From NCBI GenBank assembly GCA_021157815.1, contig JAGGVT010000125.1:1-17527 (forward strand): DNA of 17,527 nucleotides. The letters are read 5' to 3'. Below, piece after piece: positions 1-16,857 of the stretch. The notes under the pieces were generated by a model. The model was not told the origin of the DNA, did no database searches, and saw nothing but the letters and a program-made list of their open reading frames with translations. The DNA comes from a bacterium (GTDB lineage Bacteria; JAJVIF01; JAGGVT01). Position 1 is the stretch's first letter. Each line of letters opens with the position of its first letter. The translations under genes and the position numbers were made by a program.

Positions 1-283
1 ATGCGCCCAAAACGGTAGATTTAAAGCGGAATACAACATAAACCACAGGTGAAATACGGCTTTTTATTGGGGACTTTTGTGAAAGGAGCATGAATGCTTG
101 TTAAGTCAGGTTTTTGCAACGGTACCAATATAGTATAATTATTTGGAAAATATCCAGGGACTACAATTTGTTATTTAATAACATTATCAGGATGGGCTTA
201 TGTAATCATGCCGGTTCTTCCTCAAAATTATCCTCAATGCTGTCATTTCGCTTCTTTATCAATAAAAGTTGTATGGAGGTATT
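1..283. other. Leader region upstream of first lipoprotein gene
   Basis: No convincing gene lies here. A perfect TATAAT sits at 134-139 on the plus strand, but the hexamer 17 bases upstream (111-116, TTTTTG) is a poor -35, so it is only a possible promoter for the gene starting at 284 and would give a leader of roughly 140 bases. An AAGGAG-like sequence at 83-88 precedes a 14-codon frame (94-138) that I do not believe is coding. The ribosome binding site of the next gene is GGAGG at 275-279. Confidence 0.4.
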
Positions 284-1960
284 ATGAGATTCGTTAACAT
301 ATACAGGTTAATTCCAGTGTTGCTGTTGCTGTTTGTCATGACAGGATGCGGTTCATCAGACACGGCAATCACGCCATCGGAAAATGTCGATTCAGACGCT
401 ACTGTCCTTGATAATCACTACCAGCTTGTTATCGACCAGGACGCGGGAACATGCGAGTTGGTGAACAGGAACGCAGAATTTGATGTTACAGAGAATTTCG
501 CAGTCAGGCTTCAAGGATATGAATGGGACCCTGTAAAGCGGCTTCTCTATGCAAGAGTCGAACTGGAGAATCTTGTCCGCACGATCTACTATGGTGTAAG
601 GCTTGTGTTTGACAACACGGGTGAAAGGTGGATTGTCAATTCAGACGGTTATGATGATTATAAAATCACTCCTGACGGCCCACCGACGAAATTAATGCCC
701 TTTATCACATACAAGCGGGATACATATCATCGCTCATTCCCCGGGCCCCAGAATGATTTACGTGAAATCTGTATCTACTGCCCACCCGACGCCGGCACAA
801 TTGATTTCTGGCTTGATGCTGTACAGCCGTGGGAAAGAGAAGAACCGGTTGTCGAGGAGCAGTTCTGCCACAAGACGCTTGCTATTTCCGCATGGGCTGT
901 AACCGCTTTCTGCTATGATTTCCAGTCGCATTATAATGGCTCACACTGGGATGGACTAAACGATATCGAGGTGTGGGCTGATTTAAGCGGTGTTGGAGGA
1001 CCATCCAAAGCTGAAATGTTCGATGACGGCATGCACTGGGATTATGAGGAAGGGGATTACATTTACGGAATTAGTTTCGTCCCTGACCCGATGGTCGATT
1101 TCGCAATGATTCCAATTTACTGCGAGGATTCAGATGGTTATGTTTCGCAGAACAAAGTCGCATTCATTCGCCATTACACGCTTCGCGACTTTCCAATTGA
1201 CACAATTGAACAGGGATTCTGGAGCGAGCTTATGGGTCCCCATTACGAGATAATCCGTGATAATGTCCGCTGGGAGGAATTCTGGATTGAACATAAAGGT
1301 GCTCCAATTCCTCCACCCTATGTCGATTTCACAAGGAACATGGTTCTTGTCGCGATTGTCGGAATGGGCGGCGGCGGTGAATCAATCGAGATAGACAGGG
1401 CATTTATAAATACGAAAAATAAGCTGGAACTTCAGGCATCAATCTGGAACGGTACGAAAGGATGTATCCTGCCGATGCTTCTAACAAACTCATATCATAT
1501 TGCGACAATTCAAAAGGATTTCCATTATCCTGATCCGAAAATACGCGGAAGGCTTTTCTATTGCGACGAGCAGATTCCATTTAATATTGTGGCAAGCGGT
1601 GATTTTTCCGAGATTCATGAACCTCGCCAAGTGCTGGTTGAGGACTGGGCGGCATGGGAAGCTCTTTGGGCTGAGCACACAGGCGGAACAACCGAACCGC
1701 CATTTATTGATTTTGAGCTCAACACTGTCGCGGCAGTATTCCTTGGCGACAGGGAGCTTGATGACACTTATGTCGATTTCGATAGAATCATGGAATATCA
1801 AGCGCCATCGAGGGAAATTTACTGGTCGGAGCATTATCCGGGCTACGGCTGCGAACTCGCGCCTCTGGACTGCCAGCCGTATTCAATAATCGTTTTCAGC
1901 AAGGCTGAATATTTCAGCTATGAGTTTTTCAACCGGCTTGTTCCGGATGATTGTGTTTAG
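284..1960 (+). CDS. Secreted lipoprotein with two PrcB-like C-terminal domains (paralogue 1)
   Basis: This predicted lipoprotein has 558 residues and unknown function. The ATG at 284 is chosen because GGAGG lies at 275-279; an in-frame TTG at 269 sits before that site. Residues 1-22 form a signal peptide with basic start, hydrophobic core and lipobox ending in Cys22 (VMTGC). Residues about 45-195 form a beta-rich domain shared with the next two lipoproteins (motifs VELEN, VNSDGY). Residues about 206-270 look like an Ig-like module with a DDGMHWDYEEGDYIYG stretch. Residues about 318-410 and 433-540 are two copies of one pattern: Trp-rich W..FW..H or W..LW..H, then P.vDF and a hydrophobic strand, then GC...PY.I. 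This resembles the C-terminal domain of PrcB family proteins (known as Treponema protease-complex subunits). That match is by eye, so it is tentative. The protein ends PDDCV like its neighbour at 2275. No protease gene is adjacent. Confidence 0.85.
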   Translation: MRFVNIYRLIPVLLLLFVMTGCGSSDTAITPSENVDSDATVLDNHYQLVIDQDAGTCELVNRNAEFDVTENFAVRLQGYEWDPVKRLLYARVELENLVRTIYYGVRLVFDNTGERWIVNSDGYDDYKITPDGPPTKLMPFITYKRDTYHRSFPGPQNDLREICIYCPPDAGTIDFWLDAVQPWEREEPVVEEQFCHKTLAISAWAVTAFCYDFQSHYNGSHWDGLNDIEVWADLSGVGGPSKAEMFDDGMHWDYEEGDYIYGISFVPDPMVDFAMIPIYCEDSDGYVSQNKVAFIRHYTLRDFPIDTIEQGFWSELMGPHYEIIRDNVRWEEFWIEHKGAPIPPPYVDFTRNMVLVAIVGMGGGGESIEIDRAFINTKNKLELQASIWNGTKGCILPMLLTNSYHIATIQKDFHYPDPKIRGRLFYCDEQIPFNIVASGDFSEIHEPRQVLVEDWAAWEALWAEHTGGTTEPPFIDFELNTVAAVFLGDRELDDTYVDFDRIMEYQAPSREIYWSEHYPGYGCELAPLDCQPYSIIVFSKAEYFSYEFFNRLVPDDCV

Positions 1961-4044: not shown

Positions 4045-4252
4045 AACAGGGGCACAGTAAGGAAGCTGTCTCAGAACCCTGATTTAAACATTATACATTG
4101 TCATTCTGAGCGCAGCGAAGAATCTATATGCTACTGTGTTAATGATTATATCTGATGAGAATTATTTACTTCATCGCGAATAGATTCTTCACTTCGTTCA
4201 GAATGACAGAAAATATGGGGTTCTGAGACACCTTCCGCGCTGTGCCCTTGTT
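4045..4252. repeat. Palindromic MITE-like repeat, copy B (complete)
   Basis: This is an imperfect palindrome of about 208 bp. The outer ends GGGCACAG (4050-4057) and CTGTGCCC (4240-4247) are exact reverse complements. Inside them lie CTGTCTCAGAACCC (4065-4078) and GGGTTCTGAGACA. The 29-bp cores 4099-4127 and 4180-4208 pair at 26 of 29 positions. No open frame of interest lies within, and I see no clear target-site duplication. It is the fullest of three copies in the window and probably a non-autonomous element or a structured intergenic repeat. The 544-base gap 3976-4519 contains this element, two GTAACCC hairpins and a possible promoter. Confidence 0.8.
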
Positions 4253-4479: not shown

Positions 4480-4519
4480 TTATATGTGTTTATATTTATC
4501 TCTCCCGGAGGTGCAATTC

Positions 4520-6058
4520 ATGAAGCACTATCGATGGGGGCTCATTTTGTTGTCCCTCTTAATCTCGCTTTCATTCGGGTGTTCATCCGACAGGAGTTCA
4601 ACTCCGCTGACACCCTCAAATGACGCGAATTTACCAACTGATTTATCCGATGACTCTCACGGAATCATGGCATCAGGAACATTTGAAATTAATCCTGAGG
4701 ACATGACCATTCAAGATGTCTCTGATCGAATCAGTTCTTTTCATTACAATATCACAACGTTCATTGGCGGTTATTTCAGATTCTACATTGAAAATGTCAG
4801 TGGACCACTCTGGACAATCAGGCTGGAAATAGAGAATCCGACCGCTCTTCAGGTCCACGATGTCAGGATAATCTACACTAATTTGTATGGGAAGAAAGTA
4901 GCGAACCCGGATGGATTCACCAATTTCCTTGATCCACCAGGTGGTCAGCCTTACAACCCGTTCCATTATTTCGCGAAAGAATATGACAACCACGCGTTCC
5001 CGATTGGTCCGGGCGCGATTGAGAATCAAGAACTTATTCTCTACTGGCCTGCAGGCGCACAGTGGTACGTTACCTACGCAATCGAATGCAGCCTTGGCGG
5101 AAACGCCGCTGAGCCGATTAAGATTAGTGAAATCGAGCAGGTTGGCGATATTACTCCCGCTGGTGGAGGAAAAATTATCACCTGTGATGTCGATGACTGG
5201 CAGGATGATATCAGCAGCGTTTGGATTTGCGCCAGCGATTTCAATTCAGAAGATGTGGAAATGTATCAGTATGGTGACTCAAACACATATATTGGCAGTC
5301 TCGTTAATCTGAATGGTGTCGTACCCGGCAAGCATATTGTCTGGATAAGAGCGGAATCTGACAATCCGAATAATATTAAACTATGGATGCCAATTATACT
5401 TACCGTTTTGGAAACGACTGATGACGCTCCGCAGTTTGGTTATGTTCCCTACTGTGATCCTGAAAACGTCTCGGTTGGAGTTTCCTCCAATTTAAACGGC
5501 GGGGCTGAGGATCCGCAGGGGGATGGCGTAACTTTCTACTGGGAGCAGATTTCACCGTCATCGCCAACAGGCGCGTTCACAGGTTCAGGGGGCGCAAACG
5601 CGTCATCCGCTGTCTGGTCGCCACCGCAGGTTGATGAGGACACACAGTATCTTATGACAATTCGAGTGGGCGAACAGTCAGGGTCTCAGATTTCAAGAGC
5701 GGTTGTCGAAATTATCAATCATGTTCCTCTTCCCCCTGAAATCATCAACGGACCGTTGATTGTTCCGTCGCCTCTTACTGAAAACACAAACGGGCAATTT
5801 TCTGTTATAGCGGAAGACCCTAATCAGCCCGGCATACCGGTTGTGTTCGATTATTACTGGGAGCAGATGAGTCCGACAGCCCCTACCGGTGTATGGTATG
5901 GAACATCTTATGGGCATGGCCGCTATCCTGTCTGGATTGCTCCTGAAGTTGGATCGGACACATCGTTCACTTTCCGTGTGACAATCACAAAGGATTGGAC
6001 ATCGCCGCCAATGACCACTGAGGGATTTGTCGAGTTTGATGTAACGGACGTTGATTAA
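4520..6058 (+). CDS. Secreted lipoprotein with shared N-terminal domain and two Ig-like repeats
   Basis: This lipoprotein has 512 residues and unknown function. The ATG at 4520 is preferred because GGAGG (4507-4511) lies eight bases before it; an in-frame ATG at 4484 has no such site. The signal peptide ends at Cys21 (LSFGC); Phe at -2 is slightly unusual for a lipobox. Residues about 90-195 (LEIENP, DVRIIYTN, NPDGFTNFLDP) match the N-terminal domain of the two lipoproteins upstream. About 196-290 is an Ig-like module. Residues about 301-400 and 405-512 are two tandem repeats of one fold with shared motifs EDP, (F/Y)YWEQ(I/M)SP and a V...P.V conclusion, as in PKD or cadherin-type surface repeats. 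The family relationship suggests the cell uses one targeting or binding domain with exchangeable C-terminal modules. Confidence 0.85.
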   Translation: MKHYRWGLILLSLLISLSFGCSSDRSSTPLTPSNDANLPTDLSDDSHGIMASGTFEINPEDMTIQDVSDRISSFHYNITTFIGGYFRFYIENVSGPLWTIRLEIENPTALQVHDVRIIYTNLYGKKVANPDGFTNFLDPPGGQPYNPFHYFAKEYDNHAFPIGPGAIENQELILYWPAGAQWYVTYAIECSLGGNAAEPIKISEIEQVGDITPAGGGKIITCDVDDWQDDISSVWICASDFNSEDVEMYQYGDSNTYIGSLVNLNGVVPGKHIVWIRAESDNPNNIKLWMPIILTVLETTDDAPQFGYVPYCDPENVSVGVSSNLNGGAEDPQGDGVTFYWEQISPSSPTGAFTGSGGANASSAVWSPPQVDEDTQYLMTIRVGEQSGSQISRAVVEIINHVPLPPEIINGPLIVPSPLTENTNGQFSVIAEDPNQPGIPVVFDYYWEQMSPTAPTGVWYGTSYGHGRYPVWIAPEVGSDTSFTFRVTITKDWTSPPMTTEGFVEFDVTDVD

Positions 6059-8111: not shown

Positions 8112-11100
8112 GTGATTCCGCTATTATTCAGTATGCTATTCGTTCAGTGCTCGAAAGGCAGTGATACAATCATGCCGATACTGCCATCTGGTGATTATGC
8201 ATATCAGAGCGAACGAGTTCTACCGCCGGATGATTACGATTACGGTGATAGGTCAGGTTATCAAAATCGAACGAATGTACTCCTTCAGGTAACCGCGCCT
8301 GCGGAATATTTATCATCGCAACTCAATCCTCCGCTGGTTACAGATAATCAGCCGACATTCTCTGCAATAGTGCACAACAATATTTCACGATTATCTGAGG
8401 ATGATTTCATCGCCACTGTCGATGGCGAACATGTCCGATGTATGTTCAATCCTACGTTAAACGAAGTTAGCTTTACACCGGCATCACCGCTTAAAAACGG
8501 CAACCATCACGCGATGCTGATTTTCAAGAACCCGGACGGCTCTGCGCGAAGTTTGTACTTGTCATTCAGAATCGACACCAATCCGCCAAACATCAACCTT
8601 GTCATGTGGAGTAAGGAACATGATTATGCTCTTGTGATTTTTGACAGAGCAATTGAACCTTTTCGATTAGCAGAACCGTCACGATGGCTGTTTAACGCTG
8701 AACAAAACATATTAAGGGAAAACGTTATCGTTGCTGGAAACATTACTGTGTTGCTGCCCTTGACAAACGATGCGTTTAACTTGAATCGAAACAAGTTACC
8801 TTTAACTGTATCATTTACTGATAAAAATGGTACCGCTGATTATGTTGTCCGTCGCGGCGGTTCGATGATTCGCAAAGTACAGGGTGATCCCCCCTGTGAC
8901 TGCAGTGAGATTGATATTATCATTGCACAGGAACATCATTTCCTTGAAGCGGGTGCAGAAGATTATGCCTTTTGCTACACAGTGAACAATCCGAATAATT
9001 GTGATCTCACGATGGAATGGGAAGGATGGTCGCTTACCCCTGTTGCCAATGTTGATCCGACAATCGGAAGCAATTATGATCTTAGTATCGACACCTTATG
9101 TGCCGGAACAGGGCAAGCCGGTTTTCCTGGCGTTCCCTATCCGCTGGATTTCTCGATGCCGTTGAATCTCGGCGAAAATGAAATGGCGACTGTTATATTT
9201 GAAAGGGAATACAGCCACAGTCTGAATGTATCTTTCTGGGCTGACTGTACAACTGAACAACGTCCTGACGACGATCCTCATGAAACCTGGATTGCGGATC
9301 AACATTTCGCTTTCTACGAATCATTCGACTGCAAACACCCTGTGTTCGATGAGGAACCGATTGTCCTTTACGGCGATGAGGCAGCGTATTTTATCCATTA
9401 TGGATTGATGGAGGGGCTTCCGCATAATCCGTATGATTGGCCAACGAGAATTCCGTTGGCTGGTGAGGATGTAAATGGTGATTTGTATTGTTTCAGTCTT
9501 AATAGAGCCTATTATAGCTTCCTAATGGAACAGCTTGTTCTGCATAATTGCGATCTGTTTATTATCACGAAGGCATCCGATCCAATTACCGCACTTCGTC
9601 AAGGCAATATGGCTCCTCAGCAGATGGTGCTGGATTACAAATATACTGGTGGGACATACGATTATGGCAATTCATATGTGGGCGGTGATCCTGGCACTGG
9701 AAACATTGTCATCGACAAGAAACCATGGGCTTGCAGGTATCCGGGTTTTATGCAGGGGGAACTTGAACTGTTTCATTGGCCAGATGACGACTGGCCTCTA
9801 TATTTAGAGGAAGGTGGATACAAGCACGACTGGTGTGGCGAGGAAATCGCAATCAAGTGGTGGAATCTGACTGATATTTTACTCGATGATGGCGGTGTGA
9901 ATATTGAAGGAATCAAGGTGCGAATAACAGACAACACACAGCAAAAACCATCCGGCTACCACGGCAACTGGCGTCGAAGCGCGGATGTTATGGAGCAGTT
10001 GTGCGCTATGTCTCCAAGAGGCGGTTCTGTACATAGGAAAGGCGAGGGACCGTTTGATCCAGCAGTTGAAATTCAGGTTGAACCTGGCATTCCACCAGAA
10101 AACCCAAATGATCCGCAATTATACTGGATTGATGGTCCAGCTATTCCAATCTTCGGCTCGAAGGAACATCCAACAGATGATGAAACACCGATACCTTCCT
10201 ATTGTTGGGATAATTGGGATATGTACACTCTTCAACACAAATGGCTGCCTTTTGATTATGATATAGGCAATGATCATGGTGTATGTCCAATGGGTTCTTT
10301 TATTCCAAATCTGGATGATATGCGTATTGGAGAAATTAAAATTAGAATATGTATAAACTTCGATTGCATTTATGCATTCAGAATTTATGCAATCGGTCCT
10401 GAAGACAAGATATACGACATCAAACCAGACCCAAATGAAGATAATATCTATTTCACAAATATTAATGACTATAGACTATCTTGCTGGTCACCTCTGCCTT
10501 TGCGATGTCTTGATGACGGTTACATTACGTGGGACATTTCAGCATTGCCATGTGGTGAATATAAAATCCATGTTGAAGCTTATAGTGAAACTGTATTTAA
10601 ATTATTACAAATACATGCATGCATACCTTCTCTTATAGAAACTGCGGAAAGCGATACGCTGGAACTCGATAAGGTTAAGAAATCTGATTTGGTCAGAATT
10701 GCTCCGATATATGATGGGGATGGTTATCATGAAACGAGCAGTATTCTTAGAAATGGTTACCGACCACGTAACAATCATGAAACTGAAGAGAATAATTGTG
10801 ATGAAGATGAAACAGTCGATTGCACAAACTATGTAACACAGCTTTTGCGTAGATTGGGACGACTGGATCATGACACTCACATTGATACACCAACTGGTGA
10901 TTATCCTATTGATCACTCAAGGGCATCATGGTGGAATACAGATAGAGAAGATGAAGTTAATCATCTGGAAGATCATCAATGGTATCTAATGGAGAAAGGT
11001 GATTTGGTTACACGAGATCCCAGATCATGGACCATTCCGGATATTCCACATCATGTTATGGTTTTTGTTAGAATAGATGATGATGGAATACCTGATGATT

Positions 11101-11276
11101 TAGTAGGCCCCTTTCCTGATGATTATTACGAAAGTATTGGCTATGAATATAGCTATGAAGAATGGGAATCAACTTCTGATAATGATGATGGTGTAAGATT
11201 GCACACGAGAACTGGTGATAGTAGAACCCATTTTCGCCAATGGCTTGATGATGTTGTTTTTACCAATTGTGAATAA
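8112..11276 (+). CDS. Very large lipoprotein with Ig-like domains and C-terminal Cys/His amidase-like domain (5' end frameshifted)
   Basis: The long frame encodes 1054 residues from a GTG at 8112 that has no ribosome binding site. The true start is probably ATG 8065, in frame only if the C8 tract is C9. The lipobox would then be LFVQC, with C13 in the present numbering. Residues about 58-156 form an Ig-like domain (VDGEHV, FTPASPLKNGNHHAMLIF, RIDT). The middle, about 160-880, is beta-rich, Cys-rich and Trp-rich and I do not recognise it. The C-terminus about 895-1054 has VDCTNYV with Cys904, an SWW motif, GDLV, HHVMVF with His980/981, and LHT with His1031. This order resembles the putative amidase domain family (Amidase_6) and CHAP/NlpC cysteine peptidases, which cleave peptidoglycan or amide bonds. 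The assignment is by motif order only. The next gene starts 15 bases after the stop, so the two are likely co-transcribed. Confidence 0.8.
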   Translation: MIPLLFSMLFVQCSKGSDTIMPILPSGDYAYQSERVLPPDDYDYGDRSGYQNRTNVLLQVTAPAEYLSSQLNPPLVTDNQPTFSAIVHNNISRLSEDDFIATVDGEHVRCMFNPTLNEVSFTPASPLKNGNHHAMLIFKNPDGSARSLYLSFRIDTNPPNINLVMWSKEHDYALVIFDRAIEPFRLAEPSRWLFNAEQNILRENVIVAGNITVLLPLTNDAFNLNRNKLPLTVSFTDKNGTADYVVRRGGSMIRKVQGDPPCDCSEIDIIIAQEHHFLEAGAEDYAFCYTVNNPNNCDLTMEWEGWSLTPVANVDPTIGSNYDLSIDTLCAGTGQAGFPGVPYPLDFSMPLNLGENEMATVIFEREYSHSLNVSFWADCTTEQRPDDDPHETWIADQHFAFYESFDCKHPVFDEEPIVLYGDEAAYFIHYGLMEGLPHNPYDWPTRIPLAGEDVNGDLYCFSLNRAYYSFLMEQLVLHNCDLFIITKASDPITALRQGNMAPQQMVLDYKYTGGTYDYGNSYVGGDPGTGNIVIDKKPWACRYPGFMQGELELFHWPDDDWPLYLEEGGYKHDWCGEEIAIKWWNLTDILLDDGGVNIEGIKVRITDNTQQKPSGYHGNWRRSADVMEQLCAMSPRGGSVHRKGEGPFDPAVEIQVEPGIPPENPNDPQLYWIDGPAIPIFGSKEHPTDDETPIPSYCWDNWDMYTLQHKWLPFDYDIGNDHGVCPMGSFIPNLDDMRIGEIKIRICINFDCIYAFRIYAIGPEDKIYDIKPDPNEDNIYFTNINDYRLSCWSPLPLRCLDDGYITWDISALPCGEYKIHVEAYSETVFKLLQIHACIPSLIETAESDTLELDKVKKSDLVRIAPIYDGDGYHETSSILRNGYRPRNNHETEENNCDEDETVDCTNYVTQLLRRLGRLDHDTHIDTPTGDYPIDHSRASWWNTDREDEVNHLEDHQWYLMEKGDLVTRDPRSWTIPDIPHHVMVFVRIDDDGIPDDLVGPFPDDYYESIGYEYSYEEWESTSDNDDGVRLHTRTGDSRTHFRQWLDDVVFTNCE

Positions 11277-12562: not shown

Positions 12563-13546
12563 TCACGCCCTATCCAGCGCTTTGTTGGCGAGTGTGTCGG
12601 CGCGGTTGTTTTGATTGCGGGGGATGTGTTCGATGTCCCATGATTTGAGGAATTTTAGTTGCTGGATTACGAGAGCGAACAGCGGTTTCAGCTTGGCATC
12701 CTTGACTTTGTATTCACCCGATATCTGCCGGACAATCAACTGGCTGTCCATGCGGATTACGAGACGTTCGGGGCGCAGCGATGACGCCTCTTTCAGCGCG
12801 AGAATCAACGCCTGATATTCCGCCTGGTTGTTGGTCATCGTGCCGAGGAACATCGAAATCTCTTTTAGCGTGTTTCCCGATGAATCCAGTATTACCGCTC
12901 CGGCGCTGGACGGGCCGGGATTTCCCCGTGATGCGCCGTCCGTGTATATCGTGAGTGTGCCTTTTGTTTTAACTCGATGTTCAATCGGAGTGTCATCATC
13001 GACAAGTTGAAGCGGTTTAGCGGCAGGCTTGGTTTCGGTTTCTTTGATTTTGTCCTCATCAGATTTGCTGTCGGTGGAAACGAGCAACACGACAGCATCC
13101 GCGGCGATTCCCTCTCCACGGCCGATGAATCCAAGTTTCTCCCATGTGGTGGCTTTGATATTTATCCGATTGTCGGGGCAGTTTAAATCATCCGCGATAT
13201 TGCCCCGCATTTCATCCATGTAATCAGCGAGTTTCGGAGCCTCGGCGTGGATTGTGATATCAGCGTTGTTGATTGAGTAACCAGAGTTTTTCATCATGCC
13301 CGCTACTTTTATCAACAGTTTACGGCTTGAGATGTTTTTGTATTCGGGATTTGTATCGGGGAAATGCCGTCCGATATCGCCCTGTCCAAGCGCACCGAGG
13401 ATTGCGTCGATGAGCGCGTGAATGGCAACATCAGCATCGGAATGGCCATCAAGACCGAGCTCGTGTTCAATTGTCACGCCGCCCAGAATCAGCTTGCGAT
13501 TTTCTTTAAAGGGATGGACATCGAATCCATGGCCTATCAGCAACAT
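12563..13546 (-). CDS. ispF: Fusion of IspF (MECDP synthase) and ribonuclease HI
   Basis: One 327-residue frame joins two complete enzymes. Residues 1-157 are 2-C-methyl-D-erythritol 2,4-cyclodiphosphate synthase of the MEP isoprenoid pathway. Metal ligands Asp9, His11 and His43 are present, in the same spacing as E. coli Asp8, His10 and His42, and the C-terminal signature [19 protein letters not shown] (131-149) is intact. Residues 158-193 form a charged, Lys/Asp/Glu-rich linker. Residues 196-327 are RNase HI, which cuts RNA in RNA-DNA hybrids, with the catalytic set Asp203 ([11 protein letters not shown]), Glu243 (NNQAEY), Asp267 (MDSQL) and Asp317 (NRADTLAN). Both halves therefore look active. 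The ATG at 13546 has GGAGG (13557-13553) six bases upstream; a GTG at 13552 overlaps that site. IspD-IspF fusions are well known, but I do not recall this one being described. Confidence 0.92.
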
Positions 13547-13616
13547 AATCACCCTCCGAGTTGAATTTGCAATTGTATACTAATCTGTTTTGGGTGGATT
13601 CTGCAAAGAAAAAATG

Positions 13617-13664: not shown

Positions 13665-14213
13665 CTAACCTGCTTTTCGCGTGCTTCTTTTCAATATGAT
13701 GTCTCCAATTACATTATTCATGCGCCTTGTGTCGATTGGCTTGACAAGGAAATCATCCACGCCGGCAGTTACAATTTCCCTGATCACATCAACATCATTT
13801 TCGGGAAGTACGGCGATTAATCCTGTTTTGTGCGACAAGATTCTCAGCTGGCGGATTGTCTCAACTGTACTAACCGTGTCATTATAACCGCCATGCTCAA
13901 TAACGCAGATATCCGGCTGGTATAAAGCAAAGGCGCTTTCGATATTTTCATTGGTATCAAGCATTTTTACATCATAAGAGCAATTCTTTTCGAGCATGGT
14001 TTTCAGAATTTCTCTTAATGTTTTGGATTGGAAAACCAACATGACCTTTCCCCCGACGTCAGCCTTGTCATCCAGCAAACTCAGGTTAACATTCTTAGGC
14101 TTGAAAACATCAAGCTGAGCTTTAAGTTCCGCAACTTCAGCCTCTTTTCGAGCGGACATTTCAAGGAGACTTTCCACAATCTCCAGATATTCATGAAGAG
14201 TCAATTCAGCCAT
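13665..14213 (-). CDS. Coiled-coil protein with degenerate response-regulator receiver domain
   Basis: This small cytoplasmic protein has 182 residues. Residues about 5-36 are rich in Leu, Glu, Lys and Ala (SARKEAEVAELKAQL) and likely form a short coiled coil. Residues 55-178 follow the receiver fold: KVMLVF strand, PDICVI strand, GLIAVLP strand, AGVDDFLVKP ending with conserved Lys158. Key phosphorylation residues are altered. The phosphoacceptor Asp after PDICVI is Glu106, and the acidic pair after the first strand is replaced (VFQSK). It is therefore probably a pseudo-receiver that is not phosphorylated, or one with a built-in phosphomimetic. There is no output domain. The ATG at 14213 has AAGGA eight bases upstream (14226-14222); ATGs at 14219 and 14222 are too close. 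No partner kinase is nearby. Confidence 0.75.
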   Translation of the reverse strand: MAELTLHEYLEIVESLLEMSARKEAEVAELKAQLDVFKPKNVNLSLLDDKADVGGKVMLVFQSKTLREILKTMLEKNCSYDVKMLDTNENIESAFALYQPDICVIEHGGYNDTVSTVETIRQLRILSHKTGLIAVLPENDVDVIREIVTAGVDDFLVKPIDTRRMNNVIGDIILKRSTRKAG

Positions 14214-14346
14214 CCCCATCATCCTTGTTCTAAAGGCATAATAAGCTTACTGATAATAGTATCGACACAGATAACGAAGTTGTTAACTTTTAATCATTTC
14301 AAGTGGGATAAATTGACGGCTGGATGTGATAAAATGATGTTGCTGT

Positions 14347-14400
14347 CCTTTCGACAGGCTCAGGGTATATCCTCGAACTTCGTTTGAGGATATAGCGTAG
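14347..14400 (+). repeat. Left arm of 54-bp inverted repeat enclosing rnpB
   Basis: Every base of 14347-14400 pairs with 14809-14756; the only two non-Watson-Crick positions (14349 and 14365) form G-U in the plus-strand RNA. The arm itself also forms a hairpin (14366-14374 with 14386-14394). Its outer part, CTTTCGACAGGCTCAGGG, resembles a dispersed repeat type. The inner ten bases are helix P1 of RNase P RNA. Confidence 0.9.
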
Positions 14401-14765
14401 TGCGCGGTCGCGTAATGCTGATTCCCTTCGGGGATAAGTATTATGAGGAAAGTCCGGACACCACAGGATCAGGATGCCGGTTAACAGCCGGTCGGGGTAA
14501 CCTGCAGGAAAGTGCCACAGAAAGGGAAACTGCCTACGGCCTGAAAAGGTCCGGCGATGGTGAAAAGGTGAGGTAAGAGCTCACCGGTTTCTGGAGTAAT
14601 TCAGAAAGCCTGGTAAACCCCATCCGGTGCAAGTACGGGAACTTATGGCTTGATCCGGCTGTTCCCAAAACGCATGAGGTCAGCAGCGATGCTGATCCCA
14701 GATAGATGGCCATGATCCTTTAGCTTTGCTTTAGGATACAGAATCCGGCTTATAGCTACGCTATA
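14391..14765 (+). ncRNA. rnpB: RNase P RNA (class A)
   Basis: This is the catalytic RNA of ribonuclease P, which removes 5' leaders from tRNA precursors. Hallmarks in order are: P4 5' strand and CR-I GAGGAAAGTCCGGAC (14445-14459); GCCACAGAAA; GGTGAAAAGGTG; GGTAAGAGCTCACCGG; GGTAAACCCC; AGATAGATGGCC; and CR-V/P4 3' strand ACAGAATCCGGCTTATAG (14738-14755). P1 is TATAGCGTAG (14391-14400) paired with CTACGCTATA (14756-14765). The length of about 375 bases is normal for bacteria. Transcript ends are inferred from P1, and the inverted repeats outside it could lengthen P1 by 44 bp if transcribed. A TTGACG at 14313-14318 is a possible -35, but no matching -10 is clear. It is divergent from the receiver-like gene and convergent with pyrG. 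Confidence 0.96.
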
Positions 14766-14809
14766 TCCTCAAACGAAGTTCGAGGATATATCCTGAGCCT
14801 GTCGAAGGG
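14756..14809 (+). repeat. Right arm of 54-bp inverted repeat enclosing rnpB
   Basis: This is the reverse complement of 14347-14400 at 52 of 54 positions. It also folds on itself (14762-14770 with 14782-14790, plus three inner pairs and a GAA loop). It ends in GCCTGTCGAAGGG. It has no T-run, so it is not a standard terminator, although the self-hairpin could slow polymerase or define the 3' end. Confidence 0.9.
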
Positions 14810-14831
14810 CTATACATGTAACATGATTTTG

Positions 14832-14974
14832 TGTCATTCTGAGCGCAGCGAAGAATCTATTCGCAATAACGTAAATATTCCTCCTTAGATATAATCATCA
14901 ACACAGTAGCATATAGATTCTTCGATACACTCAGAATGACAATGTATCCTGTTTAAATCGGGGTTCTGAGACAG
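14832..14974. repeat. Palindromic MITE-like repeat, copy C (inverted relative to copy B)
   Basis: Reverse-complemented, this matches copy B nearly base for base over the CTGTCTCAGAACCC arm, the core and the TGCTACTGTGTTGATGATTA inner segment. The 29-bp cores 14832-14860 and 14913-14941 pair at 26 of 29 positions. The outermost arm on the left is missing. It lies in the gap between rnpB and pyrG, after the 3' end of both, and could provide a bidirectional hairpin. The remainder of the gap to 15023 has nothing else I can identify. Confidence 0.78.
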
Positions 14975-15023
14975 ATTAACCGGATACGTTCCTACGAAAA
15001 CTCCATCATTCCTTAAGTTGAAA

Positions 15024-16857
<1,834 letters not shown>

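What the first reader, a model, noticed from the sequence alone, without database searches (positions are those of the whole stretch)
14347..14809. RNase P RNA gene enclosed by a 54-bp inverted repeat that could extend helix P1 more than fivefold
14347-14400 and 14756-14809 are complementary at all 54 positions if G-U pairs are allowed. The only two deviations (14349/14807 and 14365/14791) give G-U in the plus-strand transcript; in a minus-strand transcript they would be A-C mismatches. Known RNase P RNAs usually have a P1 of roughly ten pairs, which the inner TATAGCGTAG/CTACGCTATA provides. Each arm can also fold alone into a hairpin, so two exclusive structures exist: a long P1 rod or two local hairpins. 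Options are a repeat pair bracketing rnpB like a composite mobile unit, a maturation signal for both ends (an RNase III-like substrate), or a structural switch.
Basis: partly seen in the sequence, partly recalled or inferred. Interest (0 to 1): 0.75.

Follow-up and report, generated by a model that had tools for sequence, protein, structure and literature searches.

The report
RNase P RNA with extra-long end helix
The gene for the RNA part of the tRNA-processing enzyme RNase P is bracketed in this uncultured bacterium by two mirror-image flanks that would zip its two ends into a 54-base-pair rod, about five times the usual length and the longest of 138 such genes compared, probably trimmed after transcription as ribosomal RNA precursors are.

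Summary
The only detected rnpB in this 3.2-Mb MAG (RF00010, 253.5 bits, 14392-14768 +) is enclosed by 54-nt arms that continue helix P1 in register. 52 of 54 positions are Watson-Crick; the other two are G-U in the plus-strand RNA. Fainter similarity (p about 0.004-0.008) runs outward past a possible promoter. Among 138 rnpB genes it is the extreme outlier: P1 score 57, next 30, median 13.5; flank-only score 40 against a maximum of 17.5 in 3,401 mismatched pairings. Weaker extensions recur in excess (9 genes at 14 or more, 0.7 expected), with unrelated arm sequences. The outer 15 nt of each arm is a dispersed REP-like element; the inner hairpin occurs nowhere else in the genome. This argues against a pair of mobile insertions and fits a replication template switch seeded on P1. 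The rod is about 57 kcal/mol better than two local hairpins, so a stable switch is unlikely. RNase III is encoded. Best reading: a leader-trailer-like P1 extension in pre-RNase P RNA, probably trimmed by RNase III. Cleavage, transcript ends and selection are not shown; harmless DNA-level expansion is the main rival. No relative closer than class was available for covariation.

The parts
14392..14768 (+). rnpB, bacterial class A RNase P RNA core
   Evidence: Rfam RF00010, 253.5 bits, E 5.7e-82, full model length; only match found in the genome
14347..14400 (+). 5' arm of the extended P1 helix
   Evidence: 54-nt inverted repeat, 96% complementary
14756..14809 (+). 3' arm of the extended P1 helix
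   Evidence: pairs with the 5' arm in the predicted fold
14349..14363 (+). REP-like element 2 (TTTCGACAGGCTCAG) in the 5' arm
   Evidence: 8 further places in the genome within 1 mismatch of TTCGACAGGCTCAGG, 0 for the reversed control
14793..14807 (-). REP-like element 2 (CTTCGACAGGCTCAG), inverted copy in the 3' arm
14366..14394 (+). self-complementary segment of the 5' arm (13-bp local hairpin), not found elsewhere in the genome
14762..14790 (+). self-complementary segment of the 3' arm, inverted copy of the above
14331..14346 (+). decayed outer continuation of the 5' arm, overlapping the possible -10 region
   Evidence: BLAST match of 14331-14400 to 14756-14830 at 88%; alignment; p 0.004-0.008
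14810..14830 (+). decayed outer continuation of the 3' arm
14327..14335 (+). possible extended -10 promoter TGATAAAAT (predicted start about 14341-14343, just before the arm)
   Evidence: read by eye from the sequence; inference; the consensus scan did not list it
14712..14740 (+). P19-position hairpin inside rnpB; the same place carries REP2-like hairpins in two class relatives
14833..14940 (.). inverted pair of REP-like element 1 (14833-14858 - and 14915-14940 +), a BIME-like unit between rnpB and the convergent CTP synthase gene
   Evidence: 76 places in the genome, 0 reversed controls, many pairs 82 bp apart

Best explanation
This is a working rnpB gene whose terminal helix P1 has been lengthened outward to about 54 base pairs. 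Probable origin (inferred): while the DNA was single-stranded during replication, the two P1 strands paired, and synthesis switched template across them, copying one flank (REP element, hairpin and part of the promoter region) as an inverted copy onto the other side; similar events can also keep the arms identical. Probable working (inferred): transcription starts just before the left arm, the 5' arm first folds as a local hairpin, and when the 3' arm emerges both ends zip into a rod that closes the ribozyme and protects both ends. The perfect double strand is then cut by RNase III and trimmed to an ordinary P1, as leader-trailer helices of rRNA precursors are. Shown here: arms, register, predicted energetics, outlier status, an RNase III gene. 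Inferred: transcript ends, template switch, cleavage.
For: Intact full-length class A model match and only one rnpB found. Arms continue P1 without a gap; 52 of 54 Watson-Crick plus 2 G-U in the plus-strand RNA. Predicted transcript -231.0 kcal/mol with the rod against about -173.5 with local hairpins; the rod forms in prefix folds once the 3' arm emerges. P1 score 57 against next 30 and median 13.5 in 138 genes; flank-only 40 against null maximum 17.5. Recurrence: G330 28 bp perfect, G223 26 bp perfect, G149 32 pairs with one mismatch; G149 and G286, same family, have unrelated arms, as expected if P1 is repeatedly extended from local sequence. RNase III gene at 204.9 bits, over cut-off. Template switching creates and maintains perfect RNA stems (PMC8794818); RNase III recognises dsRNA of 11-20 bp largely regardless of sequence (PMC8687705).
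Against: No RNA data: promoter, transcript ends and cleavage are inferred. No closer relative than class was found, and the three held class members have ordinary P1 helices, so neither conservation nor covariation of these arms could be tested. Two G-U deviations carry little statistical weight. Inverted repeats of similar size occur elsewhere in the genome without rnpB. No assembly reads were available to exclude an assembly error, though the two differences and decayed outer part make a simple artefact unlikely.
Confidence: 0.5

Rival explanations
1. Neutral expansion: a DNA-level inverted duplication at a gene end, tolerated because P1 is peripheral, with no role in maturation. Arm identity reflects recent origin or DNA-level homogenisation.
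For: Other inverted repeats of similar size occur in this genome; class relatives do without; template switching can create perfect stems in one event (PMC8794818).
Against: The outer, probably untranscribed part has decayed while the inner 54 bp has not, hinting at RNA-level constraint; excess of flank complementarity over 137 rnpBs.
Confidence: 0.35
2. Two insertions of REP-like mobile elements in opposite orientation bracket rnpB, a composite-like unit.
For: The outer 15 nt of each arm is a dispersed repeat; a second REP-like family with 76 places sits 24 bp downstream; nine Y1 transposase genes are present.
Against: The inner part, including the hairpin, has no second copy; arms are in register with P1; no target duplication seen; six Y1 transposase loci read have no clear copy of either repeat nearby.
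Confidence: 0.08
3. Structural switch between a rod and two local hairpins that regulates RNase P RNA.
For: Each arm has a 13-bp hairpin.
Against: Rod lower by about 57 kcal/mol (-231.0 against -173.5), so no equilibrium switch is expected.
Confidence: 0.05

Closest known systems
Leader-trailer helices of bacterial 16S and 23S rRNA precursors
   Same: Complementary flanks of a stable RNA form a 25-40 bp helix that RNase III cuts; in 23S a 27-bp helix is trimmed to the 8-bp helix H1 (PMC10250234).
   Different: Here the RNA is RNase P RNA, the helix is an uninterrupted continuation of P1 and longer; cleavage is untested.
Bacillus subtilis scRNA (SRP RNA) maturation by RNase III then RNase J1
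   Same: A small stable RNA cut by RNase III and trimmed (Yao et al. 2007 as cited in PMC8687705).
   Different: Different RNA; no processing data here.
Ordinary bacterial class A RNase P RNA (RF00010)
   Same: Core matches along the full model.
   Different: P1 54 bp instead of roughly 10-15; rnpB 5' maturation known in Staphylococcus uses RNase J with P1 protecting the 5' end (PMC3937233).
Repeats inside RNase P RNA genes, such as STRR sequences in cyanobacterial rnpB (Vioque 1997, cited in PMC2858038)
   Same: Dispersed repeats accepted in peripheral helices of rnpB; two class relatives carry REP2-like hairpins at the P19 position.
   Different: Here the repeat is in flanks that extend P1.
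Template-switch mutations that create RNA stems (PMC8794818)
   Same: Produces perfect reverse-complement arms next to an existing stem.
   Different: Inferred here without an ancestral sequence.

Membership tests
Bacterial class A RNase P RNA (RF00010) | Score over the curated gathering cut-off with the full model | tested here: met
   253.5 bits against 100, positions 1-367
Bacterial class A RNase P RNA (RF00010) | Catalytic activity on pre-tRNA | not testable with these tools
   no experiment
Leader-trailer (RNase III processing) helix | Complementary flanks forming a long double-stranded helix around a stable RNA | tested here: met
   54 pairs, -103.3 kcal/mol
Leader-trailer (RNase III processing) helix | RNase III present | tested here: met
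   TIGR02191, 204.9 bits, cut-off 166.25
Leader-trailer (RNase III processing) helix | Cleavage by RNase III in the helix | not testable with these tools
   needs RNA ends
Leader-trailer (RNase III processing) helix | Helix conserved by covariation in relatives | tested here: inconclusive
   no close relatives; class relatives have ordinary P1
REP-like mobile palindrome pair (BIME or composite unit) | Whole arm dispersed in the genome | tested here: not met
   only the outer 15 nt is dispersed
RAYT-mobilised REP | Y1 transposase flanked by the repeat | tested here: inconclusive
   nine Y1 genes; in the six loci read only weak core-like matches and no clear copy of either repeat; three loci not read

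The most novel reading that the evidence does not exclude
RNase P RNA in this lineage, and in weaker form in several unrelated bacteria, is made from a precursor closed by an RNase III-cut leader-trailer helix that grows by P1-seeded template switching: an rRNA-style maturation route for the RNase P ribozyme.
Probability: 0.35. Interest if true: 0.65.

Novelty: new variant of a known kind. Interest (0 to 1): 0.48.

Why it matters
How RNase P RNA ends are made is known in few bacteria. An rnpB whose ends are closed by a near-perfect 54-bp helix would tie its maturation to RNase III, and the recurrent, sequence-unrelated extensions of P1 give a natural series for testing whether template switching lengthens the terminal helices of essential RNAs.

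Tried and rejected
The one genome-contig scan used the neighbouring IspF-RNase H protein and gave no close relative (best 42% identity, L058); rnpB in that genome has an ordinary-looking P1. The REP motif strings found no paper, and the literature searches found no report of a bacterial rnpB inside a long inverted repeat, which is weak because most subscription journals are not held. Composite transposon and equilibrium switch were considered and disfavoured (see rivals). The first constrained-fold attempt ('no rod') suppressed local hairpins as well and was replaced by the segment sums. The first P1 baseline read minus-strand loci in the wrong orientation; one search corrects it. One locus (L148) remained without a recognisable core there and was dropped. 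The intrinsic-terminator scan found nothing in 14000-15100. The direction of copying between the arms could not be settled.

Full report
Observation. The window holds a complete class A RNase P RNA gene at 14392-14768 + (RF00010, 253.5 bits, cut-off 100, full model), the only one detected in the 3,217,173-base, 221-contig genome. Around it lie two 54-nt arms, 14347-14400 and 14756-14809, 96% complementary. Aligning the left arm with the reverse complement of the right gives 52 identities and two transitions; in the plus-strand RNA these are U-G (14349/14807) and G-U (14365/14791). The similarity goes on outward, weaker, to 14331 and 14830 (88% with gaps for the whole; alignment; p 0.004-0.008 for the outer part alone).

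Is it unusual? I compared the duplex that contains P1 in 138 rnpB loci from as many genomes, nearly all outside the window's class. The window scores 57 with 77 pairs; the next are 30 (G286), 29 (G149), 27.5 (G330) and 25 (G223); the median is 13.5. Using only the 60 nt outside the model on each side, the window scores 40, while 3,401 pairings of flanks from different genomes reach at most 17.5. The same test shows a mild general excess: 9 of 137 genes at 14 or more, 0.7 expected. Several of these are clean extensions of P1 by local sequence, such as G330 (28 pairs, no mismatch), G271 (23 pairs, one mismatch) and G286; G149 and G286 belong to one family but have unrelated arms. So the window is the extreme of a recurring phenomenon. 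A counterweight: in 380 kb of the same genome, apart from one tandem array, two other inverted repeats of comparable score exist, so long inverted repeats as such are not rare here. The exact continuation of P1 is the notable point.

What the arms are made of. The outer 15 nt (CTTCGACAGGCTCAG and one variant) is a dispersed REP-like element: eight further places within one mismatch in the genome, none for the reversed control, and exact cores in several unrelated genomes. The inner hairpin TATCCTCGAACTTCGTTTGAGGATA occurs only in these two arms even with three mismatches allowed. A second, abundant REP-like family (76 places, control 0, many inverted pairs 82 bp apart) has a pair at 14833-14940, just downstream of the right arm and before the convergent CTP synthase gene. 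Two class relatives (G001, G003) carry REP2-like hairpins inside rnpB at the P19 position, CCCTGAGCTAGTCGAAGGG and ACCCTGAAAGTTGTCGAAGGGT, while their P1 is ordinary. Peripheral helices of rnpB therefore seem to take up such palindromes in this class. Nine Y1 transposase genes are present, but in the six loci read none has a clear copy of either repeat nearby.

Origin. Two independent insertions would need the same otherwise unknown hairpin to land twice, inverted, exactly at both ends of P1. A single replication template switch seeded by P1 pairing explains the register, the near identity and the outward similarity that includes the possible -10 region. Monttinen and Loytynoja (PMC8794818) describe such events creating and maintaining RNA stems. 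This step is inferred; no ancestral state is available.

Folding. The transcript 14342-14815 folds to -231.0 kcal/mol with the rod. Summing the separately folded arms and core gives -169.3 or -173.5. Folds of successive prefixes keep the 5' arm as a local hairpin until the 3' arm emerges, then change to the rod. These are minimum-energy predictions, not kinetics. An equilibrium switch is unlikely.

Working. A perfect duplex this long should be an RNase III substrate: the enzyme recognises dsRNA of 11-20 bp largely without sequence preference (PMC8687705), and the genome encodes it (TIGR02191, 204.9 bits, cut-off 166.25). The closest parallel is the leader-trailer helix of rRNA precursors, 25-40 bp in 16S and 27 bp in 23S, where trimming leaves the 8-bp helix H1 (PMC10250234); Bacillus scRNA is cut by RNase III and trimmed by RNase J1 (cited in PMC8687705). 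In Staphylococcus aureus RNase J matures the 5' end of RNase P RNA and P1 protects it (PMC3937233). A possible extended -10 (TGATAAAAT, 14327-14335) would start the transcript around 14342, just before the left arm; this was read by eye and was not listed by the promoter scan.

What is not shown. Transcript ends, cleavage and selection. Two G-U deviations out of two transitions have probability about one quarter by chance. The contrast between the near-perfect 54 bp and the decayed outer part hints at RNA-level constraint but depends on the inferred start. No relative closer than class was found in the collections, so covariation of these arms could not be tested. Neutral expansion remains a serious rival.

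Verdict. Real, well outside the range of other rnpB genes, and best read as a leader-trailer-like extension of P1 produced at the DNA level; a new variant of a known kind.

Noticed in passing
window 14833-14940, also 4100-4207 and 2086-2111: REP-like element AGATTCTTCGCTGCGCTCAGAATGAC occurs 76 times in the genome within 1 mismatch, often as inverted pairs 82 bp apart (BIME-like); three sites lie in this window.
   Followed up: partly
L047 (G001) and L049 (G003), P19 position of rnpB: REP2-like palindromes sit inside the RNase P RNA of two class relatives, at a place where the window's gene has an unrelated-looking hairpin.
   Followed up: partly
L251 (G330), L222 (G271), L147 (G149), L238 (G286), L172 (G223): Other rnpB genes with P1 extended to about 23-41 pairs by locus-specific inverted repeats.
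   Followed up: partly
window 12563-13552 (-): Single ORF joining IspF (YgbB, PF02542) and RNase H domains; the one full-length relative found in the scan is L058, 42% identity.
   Followed up: no
L328 2504-3183 (own genome, contig C143): Tandem array of GTTAGCAGGTTAGAAA-type units with an inverted counterpart about 400-550 bp away.
   Followed up: no
L050 (own genome, contig C31): Two REP2-like copies in tandem, apparently inside a reading frame.
   Followed up: no
window 8112-11276 (+), 269-1960 (+), 4484-6058 (+): Large predicted proteins with lipoprotein-like starts and no Pfam match.
   Followed up: no
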